From positions 1-42,882 of the forward strand of contig JAHYJK010000011.1 of NCBI GenBank assembly GCA_019429225.1: 42,882 nt of DNA, given 5' to 3'. How positions within the stretch are numbered: the first letter of the stretch is position 1; each line of letters starts with the position of its first letter. Positions 1,350 through 41,631 of the stretch are shown here, piece by piece. The DNA is from Anaerolineaceae bacterium. Its GTDB lineage: Bacteria; Chloroflexota; Anaerolineae; Anaerolineales; Anaerolineaceae. The notes beneath the pieces were generated by a model that was not told where the DNA came from, ran no database searches, and was given only the letters and a program-made list of their open reading frames with translations. Made by a program: the position numbers and the translations under genes.

Positions 1350-1361
1350 GCTTCATCTGTA

Positions 1362-1440
1362 TCCTTTCAATAATGAGCGGTAGGGTATTTTTAGCGTGCA
1401 GGTGCACGCCAAAAATACCCGCTTACCTAGATTAATTGAA
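1362..1440 (+). repeat. Dispersed hairpin repeat, copy A
   Basis: An intergenic imperfect palindrome. Bases 1383-1399 pair with 1404-1420 (17 positions, one mismatch at 1393/1410) around a four-base loop, and an outer AGC/GCT pair (1376-1378, 1421-1423) extends it. The same element is found on the - strand at 41401-41480: both share the left flank TTTCAATAAT, a GCGGT box, the T5/A5 stem core with GCGTGC, the right-hand CCCGCTTACC, and an AT-rich tail. No run of T follows the hairpin on the + strand, so it is not a classic intrinsic terminator although it lies just after a gene end. Confidence 0.75.
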
Positions 1441-1461
1441 TTGAGATATTCAACTCAATTC
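1438..1461 (+). repeat. Short inverted repeat upstream of rarA
   Basis: GAATTGAG (1438-1445) is repeated in inverse as CTCAATTC (1454-1461) with an eight-base loop. It directly follows the dispersed hairpin and lies about 80 bases before the rarA start. It could be an operator or a secondary structure; nothing more can be said. Confidence 0.4.
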
Positions 1462-7223: not shown

Positions 7224-10200
7224 TCAGCTTAGCTTCACCCAGAGATGATGCACAATGCCATCCCGCCGGAAAATATGCTGGCTGTTGATTTCATCCAGGC
7301 AATCACCTGCGATTGTTTGTGTTGTGCCATCGTTCAGGAAAACTTCAATGCCAGAATTTTTGGCCAGTTGAACCACAATGGGCACCCCACAACAAGTGAA
7401 TCCCAGGCAGCCAGCGGGTAATTGGATCTGCTGGGATATATCATTGACATCCTGGTATTGGATCGTCCTGGGTTCCGAAAGAAGTTCGCTGGGGTCAAAT
7501 AACAGCGCATTGAAAGTAAGGCATCCATTCTTGATCACCAATCCAACCTCAGCCATTCTGGCGATGACTTCTTCTTTCACCAACCCGGTCATGCCAGGCT
7601 GTTTTGCTCCCTGCCCATTGGGTGTGTGCGAATAAGGATCGGTGGGAAATGCGCCAAATTTGGCTGGAGATTTGTAGAGTCCAAGACCTGCACGAATATC
7701 CTCATATTTTTCTATTAATCCGGCTGAGGAAGAGTCAAACTGGTATTTCAAGGCAGTTTCCTGGACAGCCAGCAGCAGCTTCGAAACCATGTGCCAGTAA
7801 ACACTCCCGAGTCCTTCGTAAGCAAAAAATTTCCCGGACCGCCCTGTAAACTCGGCATGGTGGAATACATCCTCAAATAAGGCTGCTATTTTTTCTCCTT
7901 CTGAAACGACTAATTCAGCCAATTCTGGTTGTTTTGCCAGATTTTCCAAAGCTTCGTACACATCTTTGGCATTGTGCAGTTCTCCGCCAAAATGATACAG
8001 TCCATCCAAATCTCGTACGAGCAATGTTTTATCCTGCTTTTCTGCCAGAATAGCTGGCAGTTGCAAATCTCCAATTTGATCCATCGAAATCGTATTTTTG
8101 GATAGAAAACCCGGTTGGGGTTTATCTGGATATAAAATGTAAGTGTTCTGATCTTCACGGAAGAGAGCACTGCTTCGTAAACTTTGCAATAGTGCCAGCG
8201 ATTCATCGCCGGAAAGCAGTCCTGAAGAAAGAATAGAAACCTGACCCTCCAGCATTTCCTTCAGATGGCTGATGCTGGCATTATTTTCACCGACATCCAA
8301 AATGTTGTAAGTATGAAAAAGCTGATCGCTGCGTTTGTTAGCACGCAAAGAATGTTCAATAAATTGTTGCACCAGGTCTAAGAACTCAAGCAAGTCATTA
8401 CTGCTGATCGAATTCAAATTCCCAGAGAAATTCTGATCGTAAATTTTCCAGCGATAATCACTACCAGCCTGCCCAAGCGCATCCATCATAGCACGACGTT
8501 GTTTGTTATCAAATTCTGACGCCAGGACTGGGTAAAACTGCTCAAAGATCTTTTTCATCTGGGCAAAAAGCAAAACAACTTCTTCGCTGATGCTTAAATT
8601 GATAGTTGTTTTTTTACTCAACAGTTCTCGACAAAAAACAATATACCGGCGCAAATAACCCAGAGTAACCACGGATAAACCCTTACCAACTAACGCGTTA
8701 TTGGCATCATTCCACTCCGGGCGTTGCGTGTTCATCCAGATACCGCCCTCCGGGACAAAATTAACCAGCTTCGCTAAAAGCAAGATAAGTAATTTTTCCC
8801 CAAGAGAGCGATGTAGAACCTGACCATCTGAATCAAACATTAATTTTCCGTCTGTTCCAAACAATTTAACTCTTTCATCAATCTCGCCTTCCATCGCATC
8901 ATCAAAATGGATGGTATTATACGGATCCTCCAATAGGTCAGAATAAGGTTTGATGCGGTATGGAATATTCGCAAAGCTCAGGATGTGCGATTCAAGGAAG
9001 TCGCTCAATCGCCCTGGATGGACCTTTGCACTGATTTCCATCAACTTCAACAAGTAAATAATCTGATGATCACTCCAATAGCCTATATTAGCCCAGGGAT
9101 TTCCTGGATCCGGGATTTCCCAATCCAGACCAGATCGTGTGATACGGTATGGATTATATCCATCGGCAGTGGTAGCGCTCAGAAAAGTGAAAATCATTCC
9201 TTCCACAAATTCCGGGTAGGAATACGACAATGCTTCCCAATTCTGGAAAATATCACGCCAGTTCCCTTCATAGTCCAGGCGCACAGATCCATCCGGTTTT
9301 TTTATATTGATCGTAAACTTATTCCAGGGACGACTGGGATCTCCATGTCGACGGCTAAAAGTCAATGGCAAATAGATGTAGCCCAGCCGGATGAGATCCG
9401 TTGAACCCTGAGTCTGTAATCGGGTATGGAAGTCCCAAATATGAATTTTCTTCGGCAGGTTCTTCAAAAATTCAGAATGAGTCTTATGCAGTTGGTGATG
9501 ATGGTTAGAGACAAACTCTGAAAAATCAGCACTGTCAATCCTATACTGGTCGGCAAAGGTGCCACCGCGCATCAAATTAAACATAACATTTGAAAAATGA
9601 TGTGAAGTTCGAAGAATATTAGCACTCAACTGCAACCCATCAGCGCTGGCAACAATATTTTCCAATTGGTGAGTGTTGGCATTAACGTCTTGCTCAATTT
9701 CCAGGCTAAGTTCAGCTGATTTTTTCCTGAGATGATGGATCGTGTTTACAATGTCAACTGCGTCCTGTTGAACGTCAGCCACAAAATACCAGATTTTTTC
9801 CTTACCAGGTGGCAAGGTCGCTTTGGCATGGATAAAATAGGCTCCACGGTGGCCACACACATCTACTTCTGGTGATATTTCCTTTCCCTCCCGAAATTCT
9901 TCTAATTGATTGGAAGAGAGTAAGTGACTAACCTGATCGAATCCAACTTGAAAAATTATCGTCGCCAATAATGATTCACTTGGTTCAGCTAAATCAGTCA
10001 AAGTAGCATTCAATGTATAGATCCCCAAACCTGTTTCAAGATCTAATTCACTGCGCTTATAAGCATCCAATAAGATGCTTAAGGTATTCTGTGTAGCAGA
10101 AGAAACATTTGCAGGCAGGACGTTCTGCAAACCATCCAACAATTCAATCTGAATAGTAGCTTCCGATGTGTTTGAGCTCTTAAGAGAAGAGGTTTTCACG

Positions 10201-33433: not shown

Positions 33434-33450
33434 ATACATCAATCTTGCGC

Positions 33451-33543
33451 ATATTCCTCCGCCGGCATGATCCGGATCAGGTTTGCGGGTCGAGAACTTT
33501 TATTGTTCTCCTCTCAGCCCAAATGGACTCCCCGTTGCTCCTT
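33451..33543 (-). ncRNA. TPP riboswitch (THI element)
   Basis: The - strand carries the conserved blocks in order: CGGGGAG near 33535, GGCTGAGA (33512-33519), a variable stem, ACCC (33487-33490), AACCTGATC (33476-33484), then CCGGATCATGCCGG and GCGGAGGAA (to about 33453). These are the P2/P4 core and the pyrophosphate-sensor consensus of the TPP class. It lies directly after a good promoter and before an intrinsic terminator, controlling thiN-thiB-thiP-thiQ-DUF402 in response to thiamine diphosphate. Confidence 0.95.
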
Positions 33544-33553
33544 ATATTTTTAA

Positions 33554-34897: not shown

Positions 34898-35265
34898 GCA
34901 ACCCCGTCAAGAATCTCTTTTAACCGTCTGTTTAGATCATCCGGTGCAAATGGTTTCAATAAATAATCCACTGCTCCAGCTTGTAAACCAGCTTTTATTT
35001 CCGAGTCCTGCCCTTTTGCGGAAAGAAATACGATTGGTATGTTTTCGGTTTTTGGATCATTTTTAATTTTTTCACAGGCTTCATATCCAGACATAACGGG
35101 CATACGTACATCTAACAGGATCAAGTCTGGCATGATTTTCTTTGCCATCTGACATGCTTGTTCTCCATTTGCAACTGAAACGACTTCATGTCCCACATAT
35201 TTCAGGGTAAATTCGATCAGATCCCGGATATCCTGTTCATCTTCAGCGATCAGTATCTTTGCCAT
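34894..35265 (-). CDS. Single-domain response regulator
   Basis: A 123-residue receiver domain: ILIAEDEQD acidic pocket, phospho-acceptor Asp52 in LILLDVRMP, switch Ser in IVFLSAKGQD, conserved Lys in YLLKPFAPDD. No output domain. It starts within the stop codon of the large kinase (TAATG, one base shared), so the two are translationally coupled and it is the kinase's probable first target. Confidence 0.93.
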   Translation of the reverse strand: MAKILIAEDEQDIRDLIEFTLKYVGHEVVSVANGEQACQMAKKIMPDLILLDVRMPVMSGYEACEKIKNDPKTENIPIVFLSAKGQDSEIKAGLQAGAVDYLLKPFAPDDLNRRLKEILDGVA

Positions 35266-38200
35266 TAAGCATTAACCTTTTCAAGTTTAATAGGGAGCAT
35301 AATTGTGAATGTTGATCCTTCTCCTGGAATGCCAGATGATTCCATTTTTATGTTTCCTCCATGCATTTCAATGAGGGTACGGGCAATTGACAAACCTATA
35401 CCAGTTCCTGCAGAATTCACATTGACTGCATTCTTGCCTCTAAAGAATCTTTCAAAAATATGTTCCTGTTCATCTCTGGCTATTCCAACTCCAAGATCTG
35501 CAACCTCAATATTGATAAATTCCCCCAGGGATTCTAGAGAAATTGTGATTACACTTTCGTCGTACGAATATATTCTGGCATTATTGAGAATATTTAATAA
35601 AACCTGTTCGATTCTTTCCGGGTCAGCCATGATGGAGGGAATTTTTCCAATTGGATTGATTTGATAAGAGATTTGTTTTGAATCAAACATTGCAGAATTT
35701 TTGTGAATTTCAACAATATTGTTTATTTTTGACAGCAGGTCGAATGATTCAGGTCTCAGAACGATATTTCCGGTTTCAATCCTGGAAACATCCAGAATAT
35801 CATCAACCAGTGATTTTAATCGATTTGTGTTTGACTGAATAATCTCTAAAAAGCGCTTTTGTTGTTCATTGATCATACCTGATGCACCCATCAGCAAAAC
35901 TTCTACATACCCTTTGATCGATGTCATTGGCGTACGTAACTCATGGCTGATATTGGAAATAAAATCCGTCTTCAACTGGTCTATCTGTACCTCGACAGAA
36001 ATATCTCTAAAAACTGAGACTGTACCTAAAAAGTCATTACGCCAAATTACAGGTGATAGATGCACAGAAATGACTTGATTTTCACTTAAGTTAATTTTTT
36101 CAGAAATTACTGCATCCGACTTGATTTTTGATGGTTGATTTGTCCAATCATAAATCATTGAAATCCAATGATTAATTTTGTCTCCATAATAAGTTTGCAA
36201 TCCCCGTAATGAATGATCGATCGCATTTTCTTCGATCTTTAAAATGTTATTTGCGGATTTATTTAAGAGCATAATCTCCGATTGGACACCTGTAACCAGG
36301 ACACCATCGGCAACCGCTTCCAGAATGGCTTGTGATCGACTGGCTTCAACTTCCTGATCTCGCAACATTGAACCAAGATTTTCAGATTGATCACGGACTA
36401 ATTTAAAGATCTCAGTATTATTTAGAGCCATACTGATCTGACCGGCAATTGCTTCACCTAATTCCAGATCCCGATTGGTAAAGAAATCAGGTGATTCATG
36501 GAAAATCGATAAGATGCCCAAAATCGACTCCCCAAATTTTAACGGGATAAACATCCAACTTGAAAAAGGTATCGTAGGGTTTTCTTTAGAGAAATTTTCA
36601 ACAAGAATTGAATTTTTCTCTGCAAATACTTTATTGAAATAGGTTTCTACTGAATCTAGTGGAATTACGGTTTCATCATTGGTTGGTTGATGAATTGCCT
36701 GGAATGTTTTCTCGCCTTCCAGGACATATACCAGACTACCTGACACATTCATCGAGTAATTAATCATTTTCAATGTGCTATCCAGAATCTGATCGATATC
36801 CATACTGCCAGAAAGTTCGTTTGATATTTTGAGTAGCATCTCAGTATTGCGATGTTCTAAAACAAGTTCTTTGGTACGTTCATCCACACTTTCTTCCAGG
36901 TTTTCTTTCAACTCTACTGTCTCTGACAGTAAATAGGCATTATTGATAGCCATTGAAGCTTGATTTGCTAAAGTCATTGCCAATTCGGTTTCATCGTGTA
37001 AAAAGCGCCTTGATGTTGGAGATTCCAATGCAATCCACCCAAACACTTTATCTGAACTCTGCAAGGGAATTAATAACACTGATTTTGTACCTCGCTGAGA
37101 AAAATAATGTTGTAGTGAATCATCAATCTCATTTTCTTCAGCGATATCCTGAATGTGAGATGTACCGCGAGATTGAATTAATTTCTCGAAAAGTGGTTGT
37201 TGATTAACGTTTAAATTGGGAAAGTGTTCTAACGCTGGTTTTTGGAATGACAATTTTACATCACCATTTCCACTTAATAAAAATATAGAAATCATTTCAC
37301 AATTGATAATATTCAAAACGTAATCGGCTGTTAACTTTGTGATGTGGGATATATCCAACGAGCGATTAACCTCAGATGAAAATTGGTTCAACCAGGTCAA
37401 TTTTTGAGTTCGTTCATCAAGTTCTGATCCTCTTCTAAGCGAATCCTGATACAAACTGGCATTATCCAAAGCGATCGCTGCCTGAGAAGCAAAGGCTTCG
37501 GCCAATTGCACCAGCTCTTCGTTATAATAATTTTTTTCTCTTTTCTCTAAGGCGATCACTCCAATAACTTCGGTTTTTGAAATCAGAGGTATACCCAGCC
37601 AGGATAAATTTTCAATTTCCATTAATGATGGAAAACGTATATCTTCTCTTATATCCGAAATGAGAACGGATTTTTTGGTGTTGAACATCTCCTGAAAGAG
37701 CAGAGAATCATCGATTTGCACTTGTAAGCCCGTTCTGTCCTCTTTATCCGTAAATCCGTCTGTTGCAATAACTCTTAATTGATTTTTCTCTTTTTCCCAC
37801 AAAGTTGCAGTTTGATAATCAATCAATTGTCTCAATTTAATCAACAAAGAATTTTGTAATTCCTGTCGATTCAAACTGGCTGAAATAGTTTTAGAAAGAT
37901 CTGAAAGAATTTTTAGTCTTTCTGATTGTTTTTCAGTGGTCAAAAATAGATCAGCATTCGCTAATGCTAAATTTGCCTGTTGTAATAAAGAAAGAGTGAT
38001 CGATTCATCTTCATCAGAAAAGGCTTTCTCTTTATTAAAAACCTCCAATATCAGTACACCAATACATTGATTCGATGAGATCAATGGTGCTTGAAGGCAG
38101 GCACATGGAATTTGATTTTGAGTAGCTCGTAAATATAGAACTGCTTCTGTTTCAGTCAACCGATAATTCACAGGAAAATCCATATCATTCAACATAAGTG

Positions 38201-40448
38201 TTTTTTGATGTTCGCAGATTTCAACCGGGAGACTGGGGCGTACAAATTGAATTTCGAGTAAGCTTTCAGAATAGTTATAAATGTGTTCTGGTTTGACAGA
38301 CTGATCGAATTCATTCCACAAACCAATCCATCCTGCATCTGCAGCGGGAATAAATTCAATCAATACTGCCAATAATTCTTTCAATATTAGTTCTGGTCGA
38401 AGGCTGGTTATCTTTTGGCTAAACTGATTGATTTTTTTCAATTCATCAATCAATTTATCCTGTTCCATTTTTTCATTGATCGCTTCGATCGTTCGCAAGG
38501 ATAAATTCGCCTGATCTACCACATATGCCAATTGGTTCGCCGCTGAAAGGATCAGTTGAATATCACCCTGATCAAAAAAGCTAAGCGTGTGACTTCCAAA
38601 CCAAATTTCCCCAATGCCTTGGTTCTTCACAATCATCGGAACAACAATGGCTGATTGTAAATCACATCGATCCACAATATTTTGATAAAAGTTGGGAATG
38701 GGTTTTGTTTCATCAAATTTCCCAATTAACAAAGGTTCTTTCAAATGAGTAACAGTCCCAAGAAAATCTGAGGAGGAAAGGGATAATTCTCCTTCACTCA
38801 GATCAAGTTGCCAGTATCCATAGTTCGACTCCGGTTTCCACTCCAATTTCATGCTGGCTTGATCTACCAGAAATATTCCACCTACATCAGCATGCAACAA
38901 TAGCGATAATTCATTAATAGAAAATGCTAGCACTTCACTCAAGGTAGCATTTGAACTGGCTAAGGATGAGATTCTTCGAAGTGTTTCCGCTCGTTGTGTT
39001 CTTAGTCTAGATTGTATAAGCAGGTAAAGATTTTCTATGAGAGGGGCTGTTTGATTTGCAACGATCATCAATAAATGCATTTCATCCTGAGAAAAAATTG
39101 TTGCTCCATTATGATGATTGGCCGCCAGAATATAACCCATGGGCTCGCTACCAGGAGACAAAGGAATCAACACAGCTTCCCGGATGGATGCAGCACTGGC
39201 AAGATGTGATAAACCAAGGTCAGACCATTGCCTGTTATCCATCGCATTTTCAACGATCAAAATATCCTGAGAAAACAGTATGTTTCCCGCAACGCTATCT
39301 GAATCGATATTGATTCGGATAATATCAACGATTGGATCTGGTAAACCTTTAAAGGGTTTCTTAGCCTCCAGTATATTTGTTTGTTCCTCAAATATGATAA
39401 AACCAAAGATATCAATGGGTAACAGGTTTTCAAAACTATTTATTATATTTTTGAATAATTCTTGTGGCTCCTGAATTTTACTGAATGAGTAGGATAATTT
39501 CGCTAAACCGCTCAACTCCAGTGATTTCCGCTTTACTTCATGGTTCTTCCAGGCGTTATAAAGACCAATTGAAATCTGATTCATAAAACCAGGTTCCAGT
39601 TCCTGTACTTTTTTTGAGATTCCTGAAGTTTCAATATTTCCTAAGACAATCACCCCGGCCAAAGCATTGTTTATCCACAAAGGGATCCCTGCAAGTTCGT
39701 GAAGATTCAATTCCAATGTTTCTGCAGACATCGGAATATGGGCAGCCTTCAGATCGTCAAGAAAAATTTTTTCTTTTTTCTCAATAACCTGCCCGGCAAA
39801 ACATTCATTCACATAGTAACGTTTAGGGAATTCTTGAGAATCAATATTTCCGAATTTATGAAATGGATAAGAAATTATCTCTTCTTTTTCATCATCCCAA
39901 ATCGCAATTTCAACATAATCAGTTGGGAGTCTATTTTGAATTTCTTCAAACAAGATTTGAATAATTTGATCGAGTTCTTCATTATTTGAAATTTTTTCCA
40001 GAATTTTCAGTGATAATTCATGGATTTCATCTTCGCCGACGCGACGTGTAATTTGATCTTTATCTTTGATGAATGATACCAACATTCCATCAGATGTTTG
40101 GTAACTATAGATAGCATACATTTCACCATCTAACTGAAAATTGTATCTTCCGGGTTGGATGAAAATTTTATAAAAATCTTTGTTATTCGCTTTTTTGGCT
40201 AGCAAGTTAATATCGAATTCTTGCCCTTGTTTTTGATCCAGCAAATAGGAGATCCCTGAACTTTGATACTTTATCCTGCCACCTTTTTCAACCAATAAAA
40301 CTGGGTGTGAGTAATCAATCTCTTCGTCCAATTGAGCGGTATTGGTATCTTTGTCTTGCAGCTTAAATCTAATCAATGGCATGATTGAAACTAATAGGAC
40401 GCCAAGCATTGCCAATGAGATAAGACCAATGAAAAGATAAATAATCAC
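35265..40448 (-). CDS. Giant multi-GAF hybrid-type sensor histidine kinase (no receiver)
   Basis: A 1727-residue protein. Residues 3-28 are one membrane helix; the rest should be cytoplasmic. About seven GAF domains follow in series (approximately 135-300, 310-470, 490-645, 670-835, 845-1000, 1015-1175, 1200-1345), many ending in the same pattern A-N-Q-x-x-x-A-I-x-N-A. A PAS domain (1372-1485, ILEAVADGVLVTGVQSEIML) leads to the kinase core: DFISNISHELRTPMTSIKGYVE with His1502, N box ILNNARIYSYDE, and G boxes DLGVGIA and GTGIGLSIAR. The start is GTG at 40448 with only a weak ribosome site. It lies 15 bases after a receiver/GGDEF gene and overlaps a single-domain receiver, so it likely phosphorylates one or both. 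The ligands are unknown. Confidence 0.93.
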   Translation of the reverse strand: MIIYLFIGLISLAMLGVLLVSIMPLIRFKLQDKDTNTAQLDEEIDYSHPVLLVEKGGRIKYQSSGISYLLDQKQGQEFDINLLAKKANNKDFYKIFIQPGRYNFQLDGEMYAIYSYQTSDGMLVSFIKDKDQITRRVGEDEIHELSLKILEKISNNEELDQIIQILFEEIQNRLPTDYVEIAIWDDEKEEIISYPFHKFGNIDSQEFPKRYYVNECFAGQVIEKKEKIFLDDLKAAHIPMSAETLELNLHELAGIPLWINNALAGVIVLGNIETSGISKKVQELEPGFMNQISIGLYNAWKNHEVKRKSLELSGLAKLSYSFSKIQEPQELFKNIINSFENLLPIDIFGFIIFEEQTNILEAKKPFKGLPDPIVDIIRINIDSDSVAGNILFSQDILIVENAMDNRQWSDLGLSHLASAASIREAVLIPLSPGSEPMGYILAANHHNGATIFSQDEMHLLMIVANQTAPLIENLYLLIQSRLRTQRAETLRRISSLASSNATLSEVLAFSINELSLLLHADVGGIFLVDQASMKLEWKPESNYGYWQLDLSEGELSLSSSDFLGTVTHLKEPLLIGKFDETKPIPNFYQNIVDRCDLQSAIVVPMIVKNQGIGEIWFGSHTLSFFDQGDIQLILSAANQLAYVVDQANLSLRTIEAINEKMEQDKLIDELKKINQFSQKITSLRPELILKELLAVLIEFIPAADAGWIGLWNEFDQSVKPEHIYNYSESLLEIQFVRPSLPVEICEHQKTLMLNDMDFPVNYRLTETEAVLYLRATQNQIPCACLQAPLISSNQCIGVLILEVFNKEKAFSDEDESITLSLLQQANLALANADLFLTTEKQSERLKILSDLSKTISASLNRQELQNSLLIKLRQLIDYQTATLWEKEKNQLRVIATDGFTDKEDRTGLQVQIDDSLLFQEMFNTKKSVLISDIREDIRFPSLMEIENLSWLGIPLISKTEVIGVIALEKREKNYYNEELVQLAEAFASQAAIALDNASLYQDSLRRGSELDERTQKLTWLNQFSSEVNRSLDISHITKLTADYVLNIINCEMISIFLLSGNGDVKLSFQKPALEHFPNLNVNQQPLFEKLIQSRGTSHIQDIAEENEIDDSLQHYFSQRGTKSVLLIPLQSSDKVFGWIALESPTSRRFLHDETELAMTLANQASMAINNAYLLSETVELKENLEESVDERTKELVLEHRNTEMLLKISNELSGSMDIDQILDSTLKMINYSMNVSGSLVYVLEGEKTFQAIHQPTNDETVIPLDSVETYFNKVFAEKNSILVENFSKENPTIPFSSWMFIPLKFGESILGILSIFHESPDFFTNRDLELGEAIAGQISMALNNTEIFKLVRDQSENLGSMLRDQEVEASRSQAILEAVADGVLVTGVQSEIMLLNKSANNILKIEENAIDHSLRGLQTYYGDKINHWISMIYDWTNQPSKIKSDAVISEKINLSENQVISVHLSPVIWRNDFLGTVSVFRDISVEVQIDQLKTDFISNISHELRTPMTSIKGYVEVLLMGASGMINEQQKRFLEIIQSNTNRLKSLVDDILDVSRIETGNIVLRPESFDLLSKINNIVEIHKNSAMFDSKQISYQINPIGKIPSIMADPERIEQVLLNILNNARIYSYDESVITISLESLGEFINIEVADLGVGIARDEQEHIFERFFRGKNAVNVNSAGTGIGLSIARTLIEMHGGNIKMESSGIPGEGSTFTIMLPIKLEKVNA

Positions 40449-40463
40449 CCTAAATTTCCAATT

Positions 40464-41360
40464 TTATTTTTGATGATCATTTCTTCGTTCTTCAGCAGCT
40501 AATTCTGTGATTTCGCGAATATCTGCAAATTGATGGGTATTGGGTGATACCATGCCAACAGATAGGGTCATTAATGGAGCCTTATCCGGAGCACCTTTTT
40601 CATCATGGACTGACAGGTAGCCTTGATCCCGATCCATAAAGTTGTAGTGAGTTTTTATACTCTCCGAAAATTTTTCCTTGAGACGGGTAAATAACTTTTG
40701 TGATTGGTTGAAATCTGAAATCAGAACGAAATTATCACCACCTGCATGACCGATAAAATCATAATCCTGGGTGCCAACTTCATCCAAAATATCTCCTAAT
40801 AACATGCCCGTGAAACGCAAAACATCATTGGCGGCAATAAATCCATACGCCTCTTTAAATGGCTCCAGATGATTGATACGAATATCGAATAACGCCCAAT
40901 TTTTCTCACGTATGATTTTTCGCAATTGATCTTCTATTAATCTTCCGGAAGGTAATCCAGATTGGGCATCTGTCAGGCTTTCTCTTTCAGCTCTGGCAAT
41001 TGCATTTTGAACTCGTAGGCGTAACTCTTCAATATCGAATGGCTTGGTAATGTAATCATCTGCACCCAATTCTAATCCCTGTAATTTATCACTGCGCTCA
41101 TCCTTTTGGGTTAAGAAAATAATTGGAATGTGACTTGTGCGCGTGTTGATTCTCAAACGGCGACACACTTCATACCCGTCGATATCGGGTAGCATGATAT
41201 CTAAAATGATTAAATGGGGCATTAATTGTCTGGTTTTATCAAGGGCTACTTCTCCTCGAGGAGCGATATCTACATCATAACCAAGCCCTGAAAAATAAAT
41301 ATTCAACATATTCGAAATATCATGATCATCTTCAACAACCAATAGGCGACCTTTACCCAT
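40464..41360 (-). CDS. Response regulator with degenerate GGDEF domain
   Basis: A 298-residue protein. Receiver: LLVVEDDHD, phospho-acceptor Asp54 in LIILDIMLPD, Lys106 region ITKPFDIEEL. A short helical linker leads to a GGDEF-like domain (about 128-290): LTDAQSGLPSGRLIEDQL, IAANDVLRFTGMLLGDIL and the active-site segment FIGHAGGDNFVLIS, where the consensus GGDEF/GGEEF is GGDNF (207-211). The changed residue and missing inhibitory-site motif suggest loss of diguanylate cyclase activity. ATG 41360 has GGAGG five bases upstream. First gene of the signalling operon. Confidence 0.9.
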   Translation of the reverse strand: MGKGRLLVVEDDHDISNMLNIYFSGLGYDVDIAPRGEVALDKTRQLMPHLIILDIMLPDIDGYEVCRRLRINTRTSHIPIIFLTQKDERSDKLQGLELGADDYITKPFDIEELRLRVQNAIARAERESLTDAQSGLPSGRLIEDQLRKIIREKNWALFDIRINHLEPFKEAYGFIAANDVLRFTGMLLGDILDEVGTQDYDFIGHAGGDNFVLISDFNQSQKLFTRLKEKFSESIKTHYNFMDRDQGYLSVHDEKGAPDKAPLMTLSVGMVSPNTHQFADIREITELAAEERRNDHQK

Positions 41361-41400
41361 TTGTACCTCCAAATTTGTGACTAAGAAATAATCGTATCAT

Positions 41401-41480
41401 ATCAATAAATCGGGGTAAGCGGGTGTTTTTGGCAGGCGCACGCTTGCCAAAAACACCTTGACCGCAAATTATTGAAAAGA
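41401..41480 (-). repeat. Dispersed hairpin repeat, copy B
   Basis: On the - strand this region follows the same order as the repeat at 1362-1440: TTTTCAATAAT, GCGGT, a T5 stem arm, GCGTGCG, the A5 arm with CACCCGCTTACCCC, and an AT tail. Bases 41422-41437 pair with 41442-41457 (16 positions, one G-T) around a four-base loop. It lies in the gap between the hexapeptide-repeat gene and the signalling operon, with no other feature there. Confidence 0.75.
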
Positions 41481-41631
41481 CACAAATAATCGAACAATTG
41501 CTTATCATCGGCATCAATGCTCAAAATTTAAGTATCAGATTTCGGATGACATCCTAATTATACTTAATCCGATTAACTTATGGGATCAAAGAGACGTCGA
41601 TTATTTCAGAAATTGGACAGACCTATACCGA

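What the first reader, a model, noticed from the sequence alone, without database searches (positions are those of the whole stretch)
1362..1440. New dispersed hairpin repeat family (second copy at 41401-41480)
Two intergenic elements of about 80 bases, in opposite orientations and 40 kb apart, share flanks, stem and right-hand CCCGCTTACC. The stems differ by compensating changes (GGGTATTTTT/AAAAATACCC versus GGTGTTTTT/AAAAACACC), so the fold is maintained. This resembles REP or MITE-like elements.
Basis: seen in the sequence. Interest (0 to 1): 0.55.

Follow-up and report, generated by a model that had tools for sequence, protein, structure and literature searches.

The report
Hairpin mini-transposon of a Chloroflexota bacterium
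The two hairpin repeats are copies of a 90-base mini-transposon probably moved by a known type of jumping gene, and its hairpin seems to stay paired because DNA copying rewrites one arm from the other rather than because the fold is needed.

Summary
[quoted passage not shown] At least 28 places in this genome carry it; 85 copies were collected from sister genome G005. Copies have 15-bp terminal repeats and 8-bp target duplications: 121 of 157 match at 7 or more of 8 bases, control 1%. G005 has an empty site for window copy 2. The same genome holds a 1753-bp element with matching ends, an 8-bp duplication and an IS66-family transposase. The elements are not REPs.

The inner 17-bp hairpin covaries strongly; the terminal repeats hardly do. 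Three results suggest template switching between the arms rather than selection on the fold. Loops occur in both orientations: 529 reverse-complement pairs of copies against 1 for plain reversal and 1 for plain complement. Single mismatches show no preference for pair-keeping changes. Pair-keeping double changes arose after insertion. New member of a known kind.

The parts
1351..1358 (.). left target-site duplication of copy 1 (cttcatct; decayed, 6 of 8 match)
1359..1447 (+). MITE copy 1, whole element (89 bp)
1359..1373 (+). left terminal inverted repeat of copy 1
1383..1399 (+). left hairpin arm GGGTATTTTTAGCGTGC
1400..1403 (+). hairpin loop AGGT
1404..1420 (+). right hairpin arm GCACGCCAAAAATACCC
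1433..1447 (+). right terminal inverted repeat of copy 1 (degenerate; intact in the orthologous copy L242 of G001)
1448..1455 (.). right target-site duplication of copy 1 (attcaact)
41386..41393 (.). target-site duplication of copy 2 (8 of 8 match)
41394..41483 (-). MITE copy 2, whole element (90 bp); empty in G005
41442..41458 (-). left hairpin arm of copy 2
41438..41441 (-). hairpin loop GTGC of copy 2
41421..41437 (-). right hairpin arm of copy 2
41484..41491 (.). target-site duplication of copy 2 (8 of 8 match)

Best explanation
The element is a MITE: a short DNA without genes, bounded by terminal inverted repeats that an IS66-type (ISBst12-like, single-ORF) DDE transposase recognises in trans. 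It inserts into AT-rich intergenic DNA and duplicates 8 bp. Its interior is a near-perfect 17-bp hairpin with a 4-base loop. During replication the nascent strand can switch template between the two arms, or between sister strands, which rewrites one arm from the other (compensating changes, paired indels) or flips the loop. The hairpin therefore stays paired while its sequence drifts, even in copies that are dead and at fixed sites. Shown here: copies, ends, target duplications, empty site, same-genome element with matching ends and transposase, covariation, loop inversion, compensation after insertion. Inferred: that this transposase moves the MITE, and that template switching (not selection) is the cause.
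For: MITE: 121 of 157 deduplicated copies have at least 7 of 8 matching bases in an 8-bp duplication, against 1.0% of mismatched flank pairs; mean identity is 0.86 at length 8 and 0.33-0.48 at lengths 6, 7, 9 and 10. Empty site for copy 2 in G005: two BLAST pieces that overlap by exactly 8 bases with 90 bp missing. 8 of 154 copies overlap an ORF of at least 150 aa, against 2322 of 2793 random places. Mobiliser: own-genome 1753-bp element with two inward ends, 8-bp duplication and a 549-aa ORF matching PF03050 DDE_Tnp_IS66 at 40.8 bits, cut-off 23.1. A 1873-bp element in G332 with ends GTATCCTCTCAATAATTGGGGG, 8-bp duplications at 3 of 3 copies looked at and a 50%-identical transposase. Covariation: 35 double-change cells at 11 of 17 inner pairs, shuffles 5.9, 0 of 500; all 147 distinct copies: 128 against 25.8, 0 of 500; TIR 1 against 1.0. 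Template switching: loop reverse complements 529 pairs of copies, reversal 1, complement 1, and 16 of 16 repeated non-palindromic loop types have their reverse complement in the set; copies identical outside the loop carry GGAC or GTCC, ACCT or AGGT; G>A (pair broken) 52 against C>T (G.T kept) 38 copies; 9 shared insertions: 6 both-side positions, 5 of them Watson-Crick to Watson-Crick, random mean 1.48, P = 0.001; stem divergence 29/300 against 53/464 outside.
Against: No transposition was observed. The richest genome, G005, has no detected match to this transposase at E <= 1e-10 nor to PF03050. The NCBIfam IS66 model scores below its cut-off (105 against 180 bits). The 9 shared insertions were picked by hand from 17 flank-matched pairs, and most changes there are single (17 positions). 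118 of 120 short elements with ends and target duplication keep a strong inner fold, which a needed hairpin would also give, although most loci were fetched by hairpin-based searches. Copies are related, so cell counts are not independent events. Among 48 loop transformations some others reach 256.5 pairs. TIR double changes are slightly raised in the 147-copy set (18 against 11.6, 13 of 500 shuffles reach it).
Confidence: 0.72

Rival explanations
1. The hairpin is kept by selection at each site because its RNA or extruded DNA does something there, for example mRNA stabilisation or regulation of the gene downstream; copy 2 lies 33 bases before the start codon of a response regulator.
For: Strong covariation; compensation after insertion; 8 of 154 copies in ORFs; copy 2 ends at 41394 and the ATG with its GGAGGT lies at 41360.
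Against: Stem diverges as fast as the rest of the element (9.7% against 11.4%); broken single changes are common (12 of 17 in the shared insertions by my count); no excess of pair-keeping C>T over pair-breaking G>A; loops flip freely; sister genome G005 lives without copy 2.
Confidence: 0.15
2. The hairpin is selected only through transposition: it helps the element to be copied or recognised, and covariation reflects different successful master copies.
For: 118 of 120 short elements with ends and target duplication in the fetched loci have a strong inner fold; other hosts' MITEs with similar ends have other hairpins, 12 of 18 with z <= -3.
Against: Pair-keeping double changes private to one or two copies arose after insertion at shared sites, where selection on transposition cannot act. 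4 of 18 elements with such ends in other hosts have no marked hairpin (z > -1); one copy in HGW-Chloroflexi-2 lacks the hairpin (L121).
Confidence: 0.18
3. REP or REPIN elements spread by a RAYT (TnpA-REP) tyrosine transposase.
For: Palindromic, intergenic, many copies; three Y1_Tnp genes in the genome.
Against: 8-bp target duplications and long TIRs; GTAG foot in 13 of 157; no copy in the three RAYT loci.
Confidence: 0.02
4. Gene conversion between dispersed copies carries both arms together and mimics compensation.
For: Two site pairs carry different subfamilies at the same place (L354/L365, L223/L017).
Against: Of the five in-place double states, two are in no other collected copy and two in one other copy; the fifth occurs in five copies. 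Does not explain flipped loops.
Confidence: 0.08

Closest known systems
IS66 family, ISBst12 group (for example ISDge4 of Deinococcus geothermalis, PMC12898284, passages seen)
   Same: Ends start GT and resemble GTGACTACTCAGCA / GTAACTGCTCAGCA; 8-base direct repeat; a single transposase ORF in the full-length partner.
   Different: The window element is a gene-less 90-bp derivative with an inner hairpin; the partner's transposase is 549 aa (449 in ISDge4) and scores below the NCBIfam IS66 cut-off.
Prokaryotic MITEs in general (review PMC10969869, passages seen; MITEPsy1, PMC3189936, passages seen)
   Same: Short, TIRs, direct repeats, AT-rich intergenic targets, transcripts that can fold, moved in trans by a parental IS.
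   Different: The word IS66 does not occur in that review; here only the interior hairpin covaries.
Template-switch maintenance of hairpins and quasipalindromes (PMC8794818 and PMC8604942, abstracts and passages seen)
   Same: Compensatory double changes, stem indels, fully inverted loops; in yeast, arm homogenisation and spacer inversion on arms longer than 9 bp with spacers of 2-5 bp.
   Different: There in rRNA genes or coding DNA; here in a dispersed mobile element with dozens of copies per genome.
REP / REPIN elements with RAYT
   Same: Intergenic palindromes in many copies.
   Different: No RAYT link, no constant GTAG foot; TIRs and 8-bp target duplications present.

Membership tests
MITE | short, non-coding, many copies | tested here: met
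   89-90 bp for most copies; 28 distinct places in the cut list for this genome, 157 copies collected from the genus
MITE | terminal inverted repeats | tested here: met
   15 bp, 86% of cells paired
MITE | target-site duplication and empty site | tested here: met
   8 bp, 121 of 157 with at least 7 matches; empty site of copy 2
MITE | autonomous element with matching ends | tested here: met
   1753-bp element in the same genome
MITE | mobilisation in trans | not testable with these tools
   needs a transposition assay
IS66 / ISBst12 group (the partner element) | IS66-type DDE transposase | tested here: met
   PF03050 40.8 bits over cut-off 23.1; NF033517 105 bits, below cut-off 180
IS66 / ISBst12 group (the partner element) | 8-bp duplication, ends starting GT, one ORF | tested here: met
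   brp13-type element; family yardstick from passages of PMC12898284
IS66 / ISBst12 group (the partner element) | catalytic DDE triad | tested here: inconclusive
   candidates D230, D356 or D357, E470 by motif recall and alignment of two full-length proteins; no structure made
REP / REPIN | GTAG-type foot of the palindrome | tested here: not met
   13 of 157
REP / REPIN | association with a RAYT gene | tested here: not met
   3 Y1_Tnp loci, no model match at E <= 1
Rfam families | match at gathering score | tested here: not met
   one search lists only a tRNA and a TPP riboswitch in the window
template-switch footprint | arm homogenisation plus loop (spacer) inversion | tested here: met

The most novel reading that the evidence does not exclude
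The family is a natural, largely unselected recorder of replication template switching in bacteria: hundreds of identical hairpins scattered over sister genomes whose arms are copied onto each other and whose loops flip after insertion. If so, strong covariation here marks a mutation process, not an RNA function, and covariation alone is not proof of a functional RNA in mobile repeats.
Probability: 0.55. Interest if true: 0.62.

Novelty: new member of a known kind. Interest (0 to 1): 0.45.

Why it matters
It names a mobile element behind intergenic hairpins of this Chloroflexota genus and ties its ends to IS66-type elements found in other Chloroflexota and, by record titles, in Desulfobacterota-type and Phycisphaerales bins. 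It also offers a test case for a general question: whether compensating changes in stems arise by selection or by arm-to-arm copying. With orientation marked by unequal ends, loop flips can be read directly, and shared insertion sites date the changes. Methods that call a hairpin functional because it covaries could be misled by such elements.

Tried and rejected
REP/RAYT: three Y1_Tnp genes in the genome but no copy in their loci. Known RNA family: no Rfam match for the element in the window. Transcription terminator: the G+C-rich core is preceded by T and followed by A on either strand, so no U-run follows; judged from the sequence, no scan run. Another IS66 gene of this genome (L199) shows none of the ends sought within its fetched locus. 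The L090 ORF has no Pfam hit at E <= 0.001 but matches the NCBIfam IS66 model; no partner end was found in that locus. PDB sequence search with the transposase: no match at E <= 0.1. No structure prediction was made.

Pairs left out of the in-place count: 8 of the 17 flank-matched pairs (L222/L058, L223/L017, L244/L362, L254/L025, L290/L348, L345/L371, L354/L365, L393/L348), because flanks did not meet at the element, subfamilies differed, or (L244/L362) both duplications differ in step, which suggests independent insertions into one site. Including L244/L362 would add double changes in favour.

Alignment A1 holds 42 of the 56 reduced copies; I left out 14, mostly the more degenerate ones, by eye. 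The check on all 147 and 161 distinct copies gives the same inner result; its TIR double changes are slightly above shuffles in the 147 set (13 of 500 reach them) and not clearly so in the 161 set (59 of 500).

Literature: the combination IS66 with MITE terms gave 7 papers, of which I saw passages of two, neither describing an IS66-derived MITE; 'miniature inverted-repeat' with 'template switching' and 'bacteria' gave 2, which by title and abstract are unrelated. The library lacks most subscription papers, so this is no proof of absence.

Full report
What is there. The two hairpins are copies of one element. Copy 1 is window 1359-1447 (+), copy 2 is 41394-41483 (-). BLAST of copy 1 against the own genome gives 26 rows, 19 distinct places. 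Among 40 other relatives, BLAST finds it in three, all of the same genus (4 of 41 genomes with the own one). The end motif TGTATCATCTCAATAA with up to 2 mismatches rings in 8 of 8 genus genomes, though weakly in two of them: G002 has 8 hits against 2 for the reversed control, G004 one against 0. The covariance model gives 55 matches in G000, 46 in G001, 118 in G007, 150 in G005, 42 in G006, 106 in G003 and none in G002 and G004. These include opposite-strand echoes of the palindrome, and 150 candidates at most were scored per genome. I count 28 distinct places for G000 in the cut list.

Anatomy. A copy reads GTRTCMTYTCAATAA, then about ten unpaired bases, a 17-bp arm, a loop of mostly 4 bases, the other arm, about twelve unpaired bases, and TTATTGAGATGATAC. 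In 157 deduplicated copies the flanks match at exactly 8 bases: 83 have 8 of 8 and 38 have 7 of 8, while 1.0% of mismatched flank pairs reach 7; mean identity is 0.86 at 8 and 0.33-0.48 at 6, 7, 9 and 10. Duplications are 83% AT against 64% in flanking DNA. 8 of 154 copies overlap an ORF of at least 150 aa, against 2322 of 2793 random places. In G005 the site of copy 2 is empty: two BLAST pieces overlap by 8 bases, with 90 bp missing. G005 also lacks copy 1, but that site is not clean. The window copy 1 duplication has decayed to 6 of 8 matches; that of copy 2 is 8 of 8.

The mobiliser. PF03050 was sought in the 8 genus genomes and matched in 5. One own-genome match, G000:C14, lies between two inward ends of the same type, 1753 bp apart, with duplication atgaattg on both sides. 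Its 549-aa ORF scores 40.8 bits against PF03050, cut-off 23.1, and 105 against NCBIfam NF033517, cut-off 180. With this protein 7 of 61 relatives match at E <= 1e-10, apart from the own copy with fragments or broken frames. G005, the genome richest in MITEs, gave none. In G332 three copies looked at are 1873 bp with 8-bp duplications and a 548-aa transposase, 50% identical to the own one over the alignment, PF03050 48.1 bits. ISDge4 of the ISBst12 group has ends GTGACTACTCAGCA / GTAACTGCTCAGCA and an 8-base direct repeat (PMC12898284, passages). So the partner is IS66-like, and the MITE is most likely moved by such an enzyme; that step is inferred.

Spread of the ends. Of 400 genomes sampled from the phylum 13 have GTATCATCTCAATAAWTCGGGG within 2 mismatches, the reversed control none in the rows shown. 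Outside the loci I assigned to HGW-Chloroflexi-2 and -3, 79 ends were looked at; 18 have a second end within 400 bp and at least 6 of 8 duplication matches. Of these, 12 have an inner fold at z <= -3, 2 lie between, 4 are above -1. Ends are thus shared while interiors differ, and a hairpin is common but not universal.

The hairpin. On 42 copies the 17 inner pairs have 35 cells changed on both sides at 11 pairs; shuffles give 5.9, and 0 of 500 reach it. The 15 TIR pairs have 1 such cell, as in shuffles. With all 147 distinct copies: inner 128 against 25.8, 0 of 500; TIR 18 against 11.6, 13 of 500; with 161 copies TIR 21 against 16.3, 59 of 500. So the inner hairpin covaries and the TIRs little or not.

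Selection or copying? First, the loop. The unequal ends fix the orientation of an element. Among 135 clear loops, 529 pairs of copies carry loops that are reverse complements; plain reversal and plain complement give 1 each; other rearrangements of the four positions reach at most 256.5. All 16 repeated non-palindromic loop types have their reverse complement in the set. Copies identical outside the loop carry GGAC (2) or GTCC (4), and ACCT (2) or AGGT (1). Second, single changes: at G-C pairs, G>A breaks the pair and C>T leaves G.T; 52 and 38 copies are seen (8 and 9 variant types), so there is no preference for keeping the pair (copies not independent). Third, time: 9 pairs of copies share one insertion in two genomes. 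They show 6 positions changed on both arms (5 Watson-Crick to Watson-Crick; random mean 1.48, P = 0.001) and 17 changed on one arm, and the stem diverges like the rest of the element (29/300 against 53/464). One pair, L003/L386, also lost one T and one A in step. The states involved are rare: A-T at pair 5 is in window copy 1 alone of 157, T-A at pair 1 in L376 alone, A-T at pair 13 in two copies, A-T at pair 1 in two, A-T at pair 14 in five.

Reading. Arm homogenisation with loop inversion is the published footprint of template switching between inverted repeats (PMC8604942 and PMC8794818, abstracts and passages). I think it most likely that this process keeps the hairpin paired. Selection through transposition or local function is not excluded: 118 of 120 short elements with ends and duplication in the fetched loci keep a strong inner fold, though most of these loci were found by searches that favour the hairpin.

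Verdict. A real MITE family with IS66-type ends: new member of a known kind, not a REP. Confidence is about 0.95 for MITE, 0.85 for an IS66-type mobiliser and 0.6 for template switching as the main cause of covariation.

Noticed in passing
L158, L099 and L163 versus L168, L171, L184: The same IS66-end MITE occurs as a 90-bp form without a marked hairpin and as a 154-168-bp form with a large inner palindrome.
   Followed up: partly
L354 / L365 and L244 / L362: Same insertion place in two genomes but different hairpin subfamily (same duplication gatctaaa), or both duplication copies differing in step: repeated insertion into one site or replacement.
   Followed up: partly
L299:1284-1588: Two MITE-like units about 215 bp apart, with ends and a 7-of-8 duplication around the whole 306 bp.
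   Followed up: no
L121, right end at 7850: A copy in HGW-Chloroflexi-2 with both ends but without the hairpin.
   Followed up: no
L026, L027, L028: Three Y1_Tnp (RAYT-like) genes in the own genome; their own palindromes were not sought.
   Followed up: no
window 33436-33544 (-): TPP riboswitch.
   Followed up: no
window 35265-40448 and 40464-41372 (-): 1727-aa GAF-rich histidine kinase and a response regulator just downstream of MITE copy 2.
   Followed up: no
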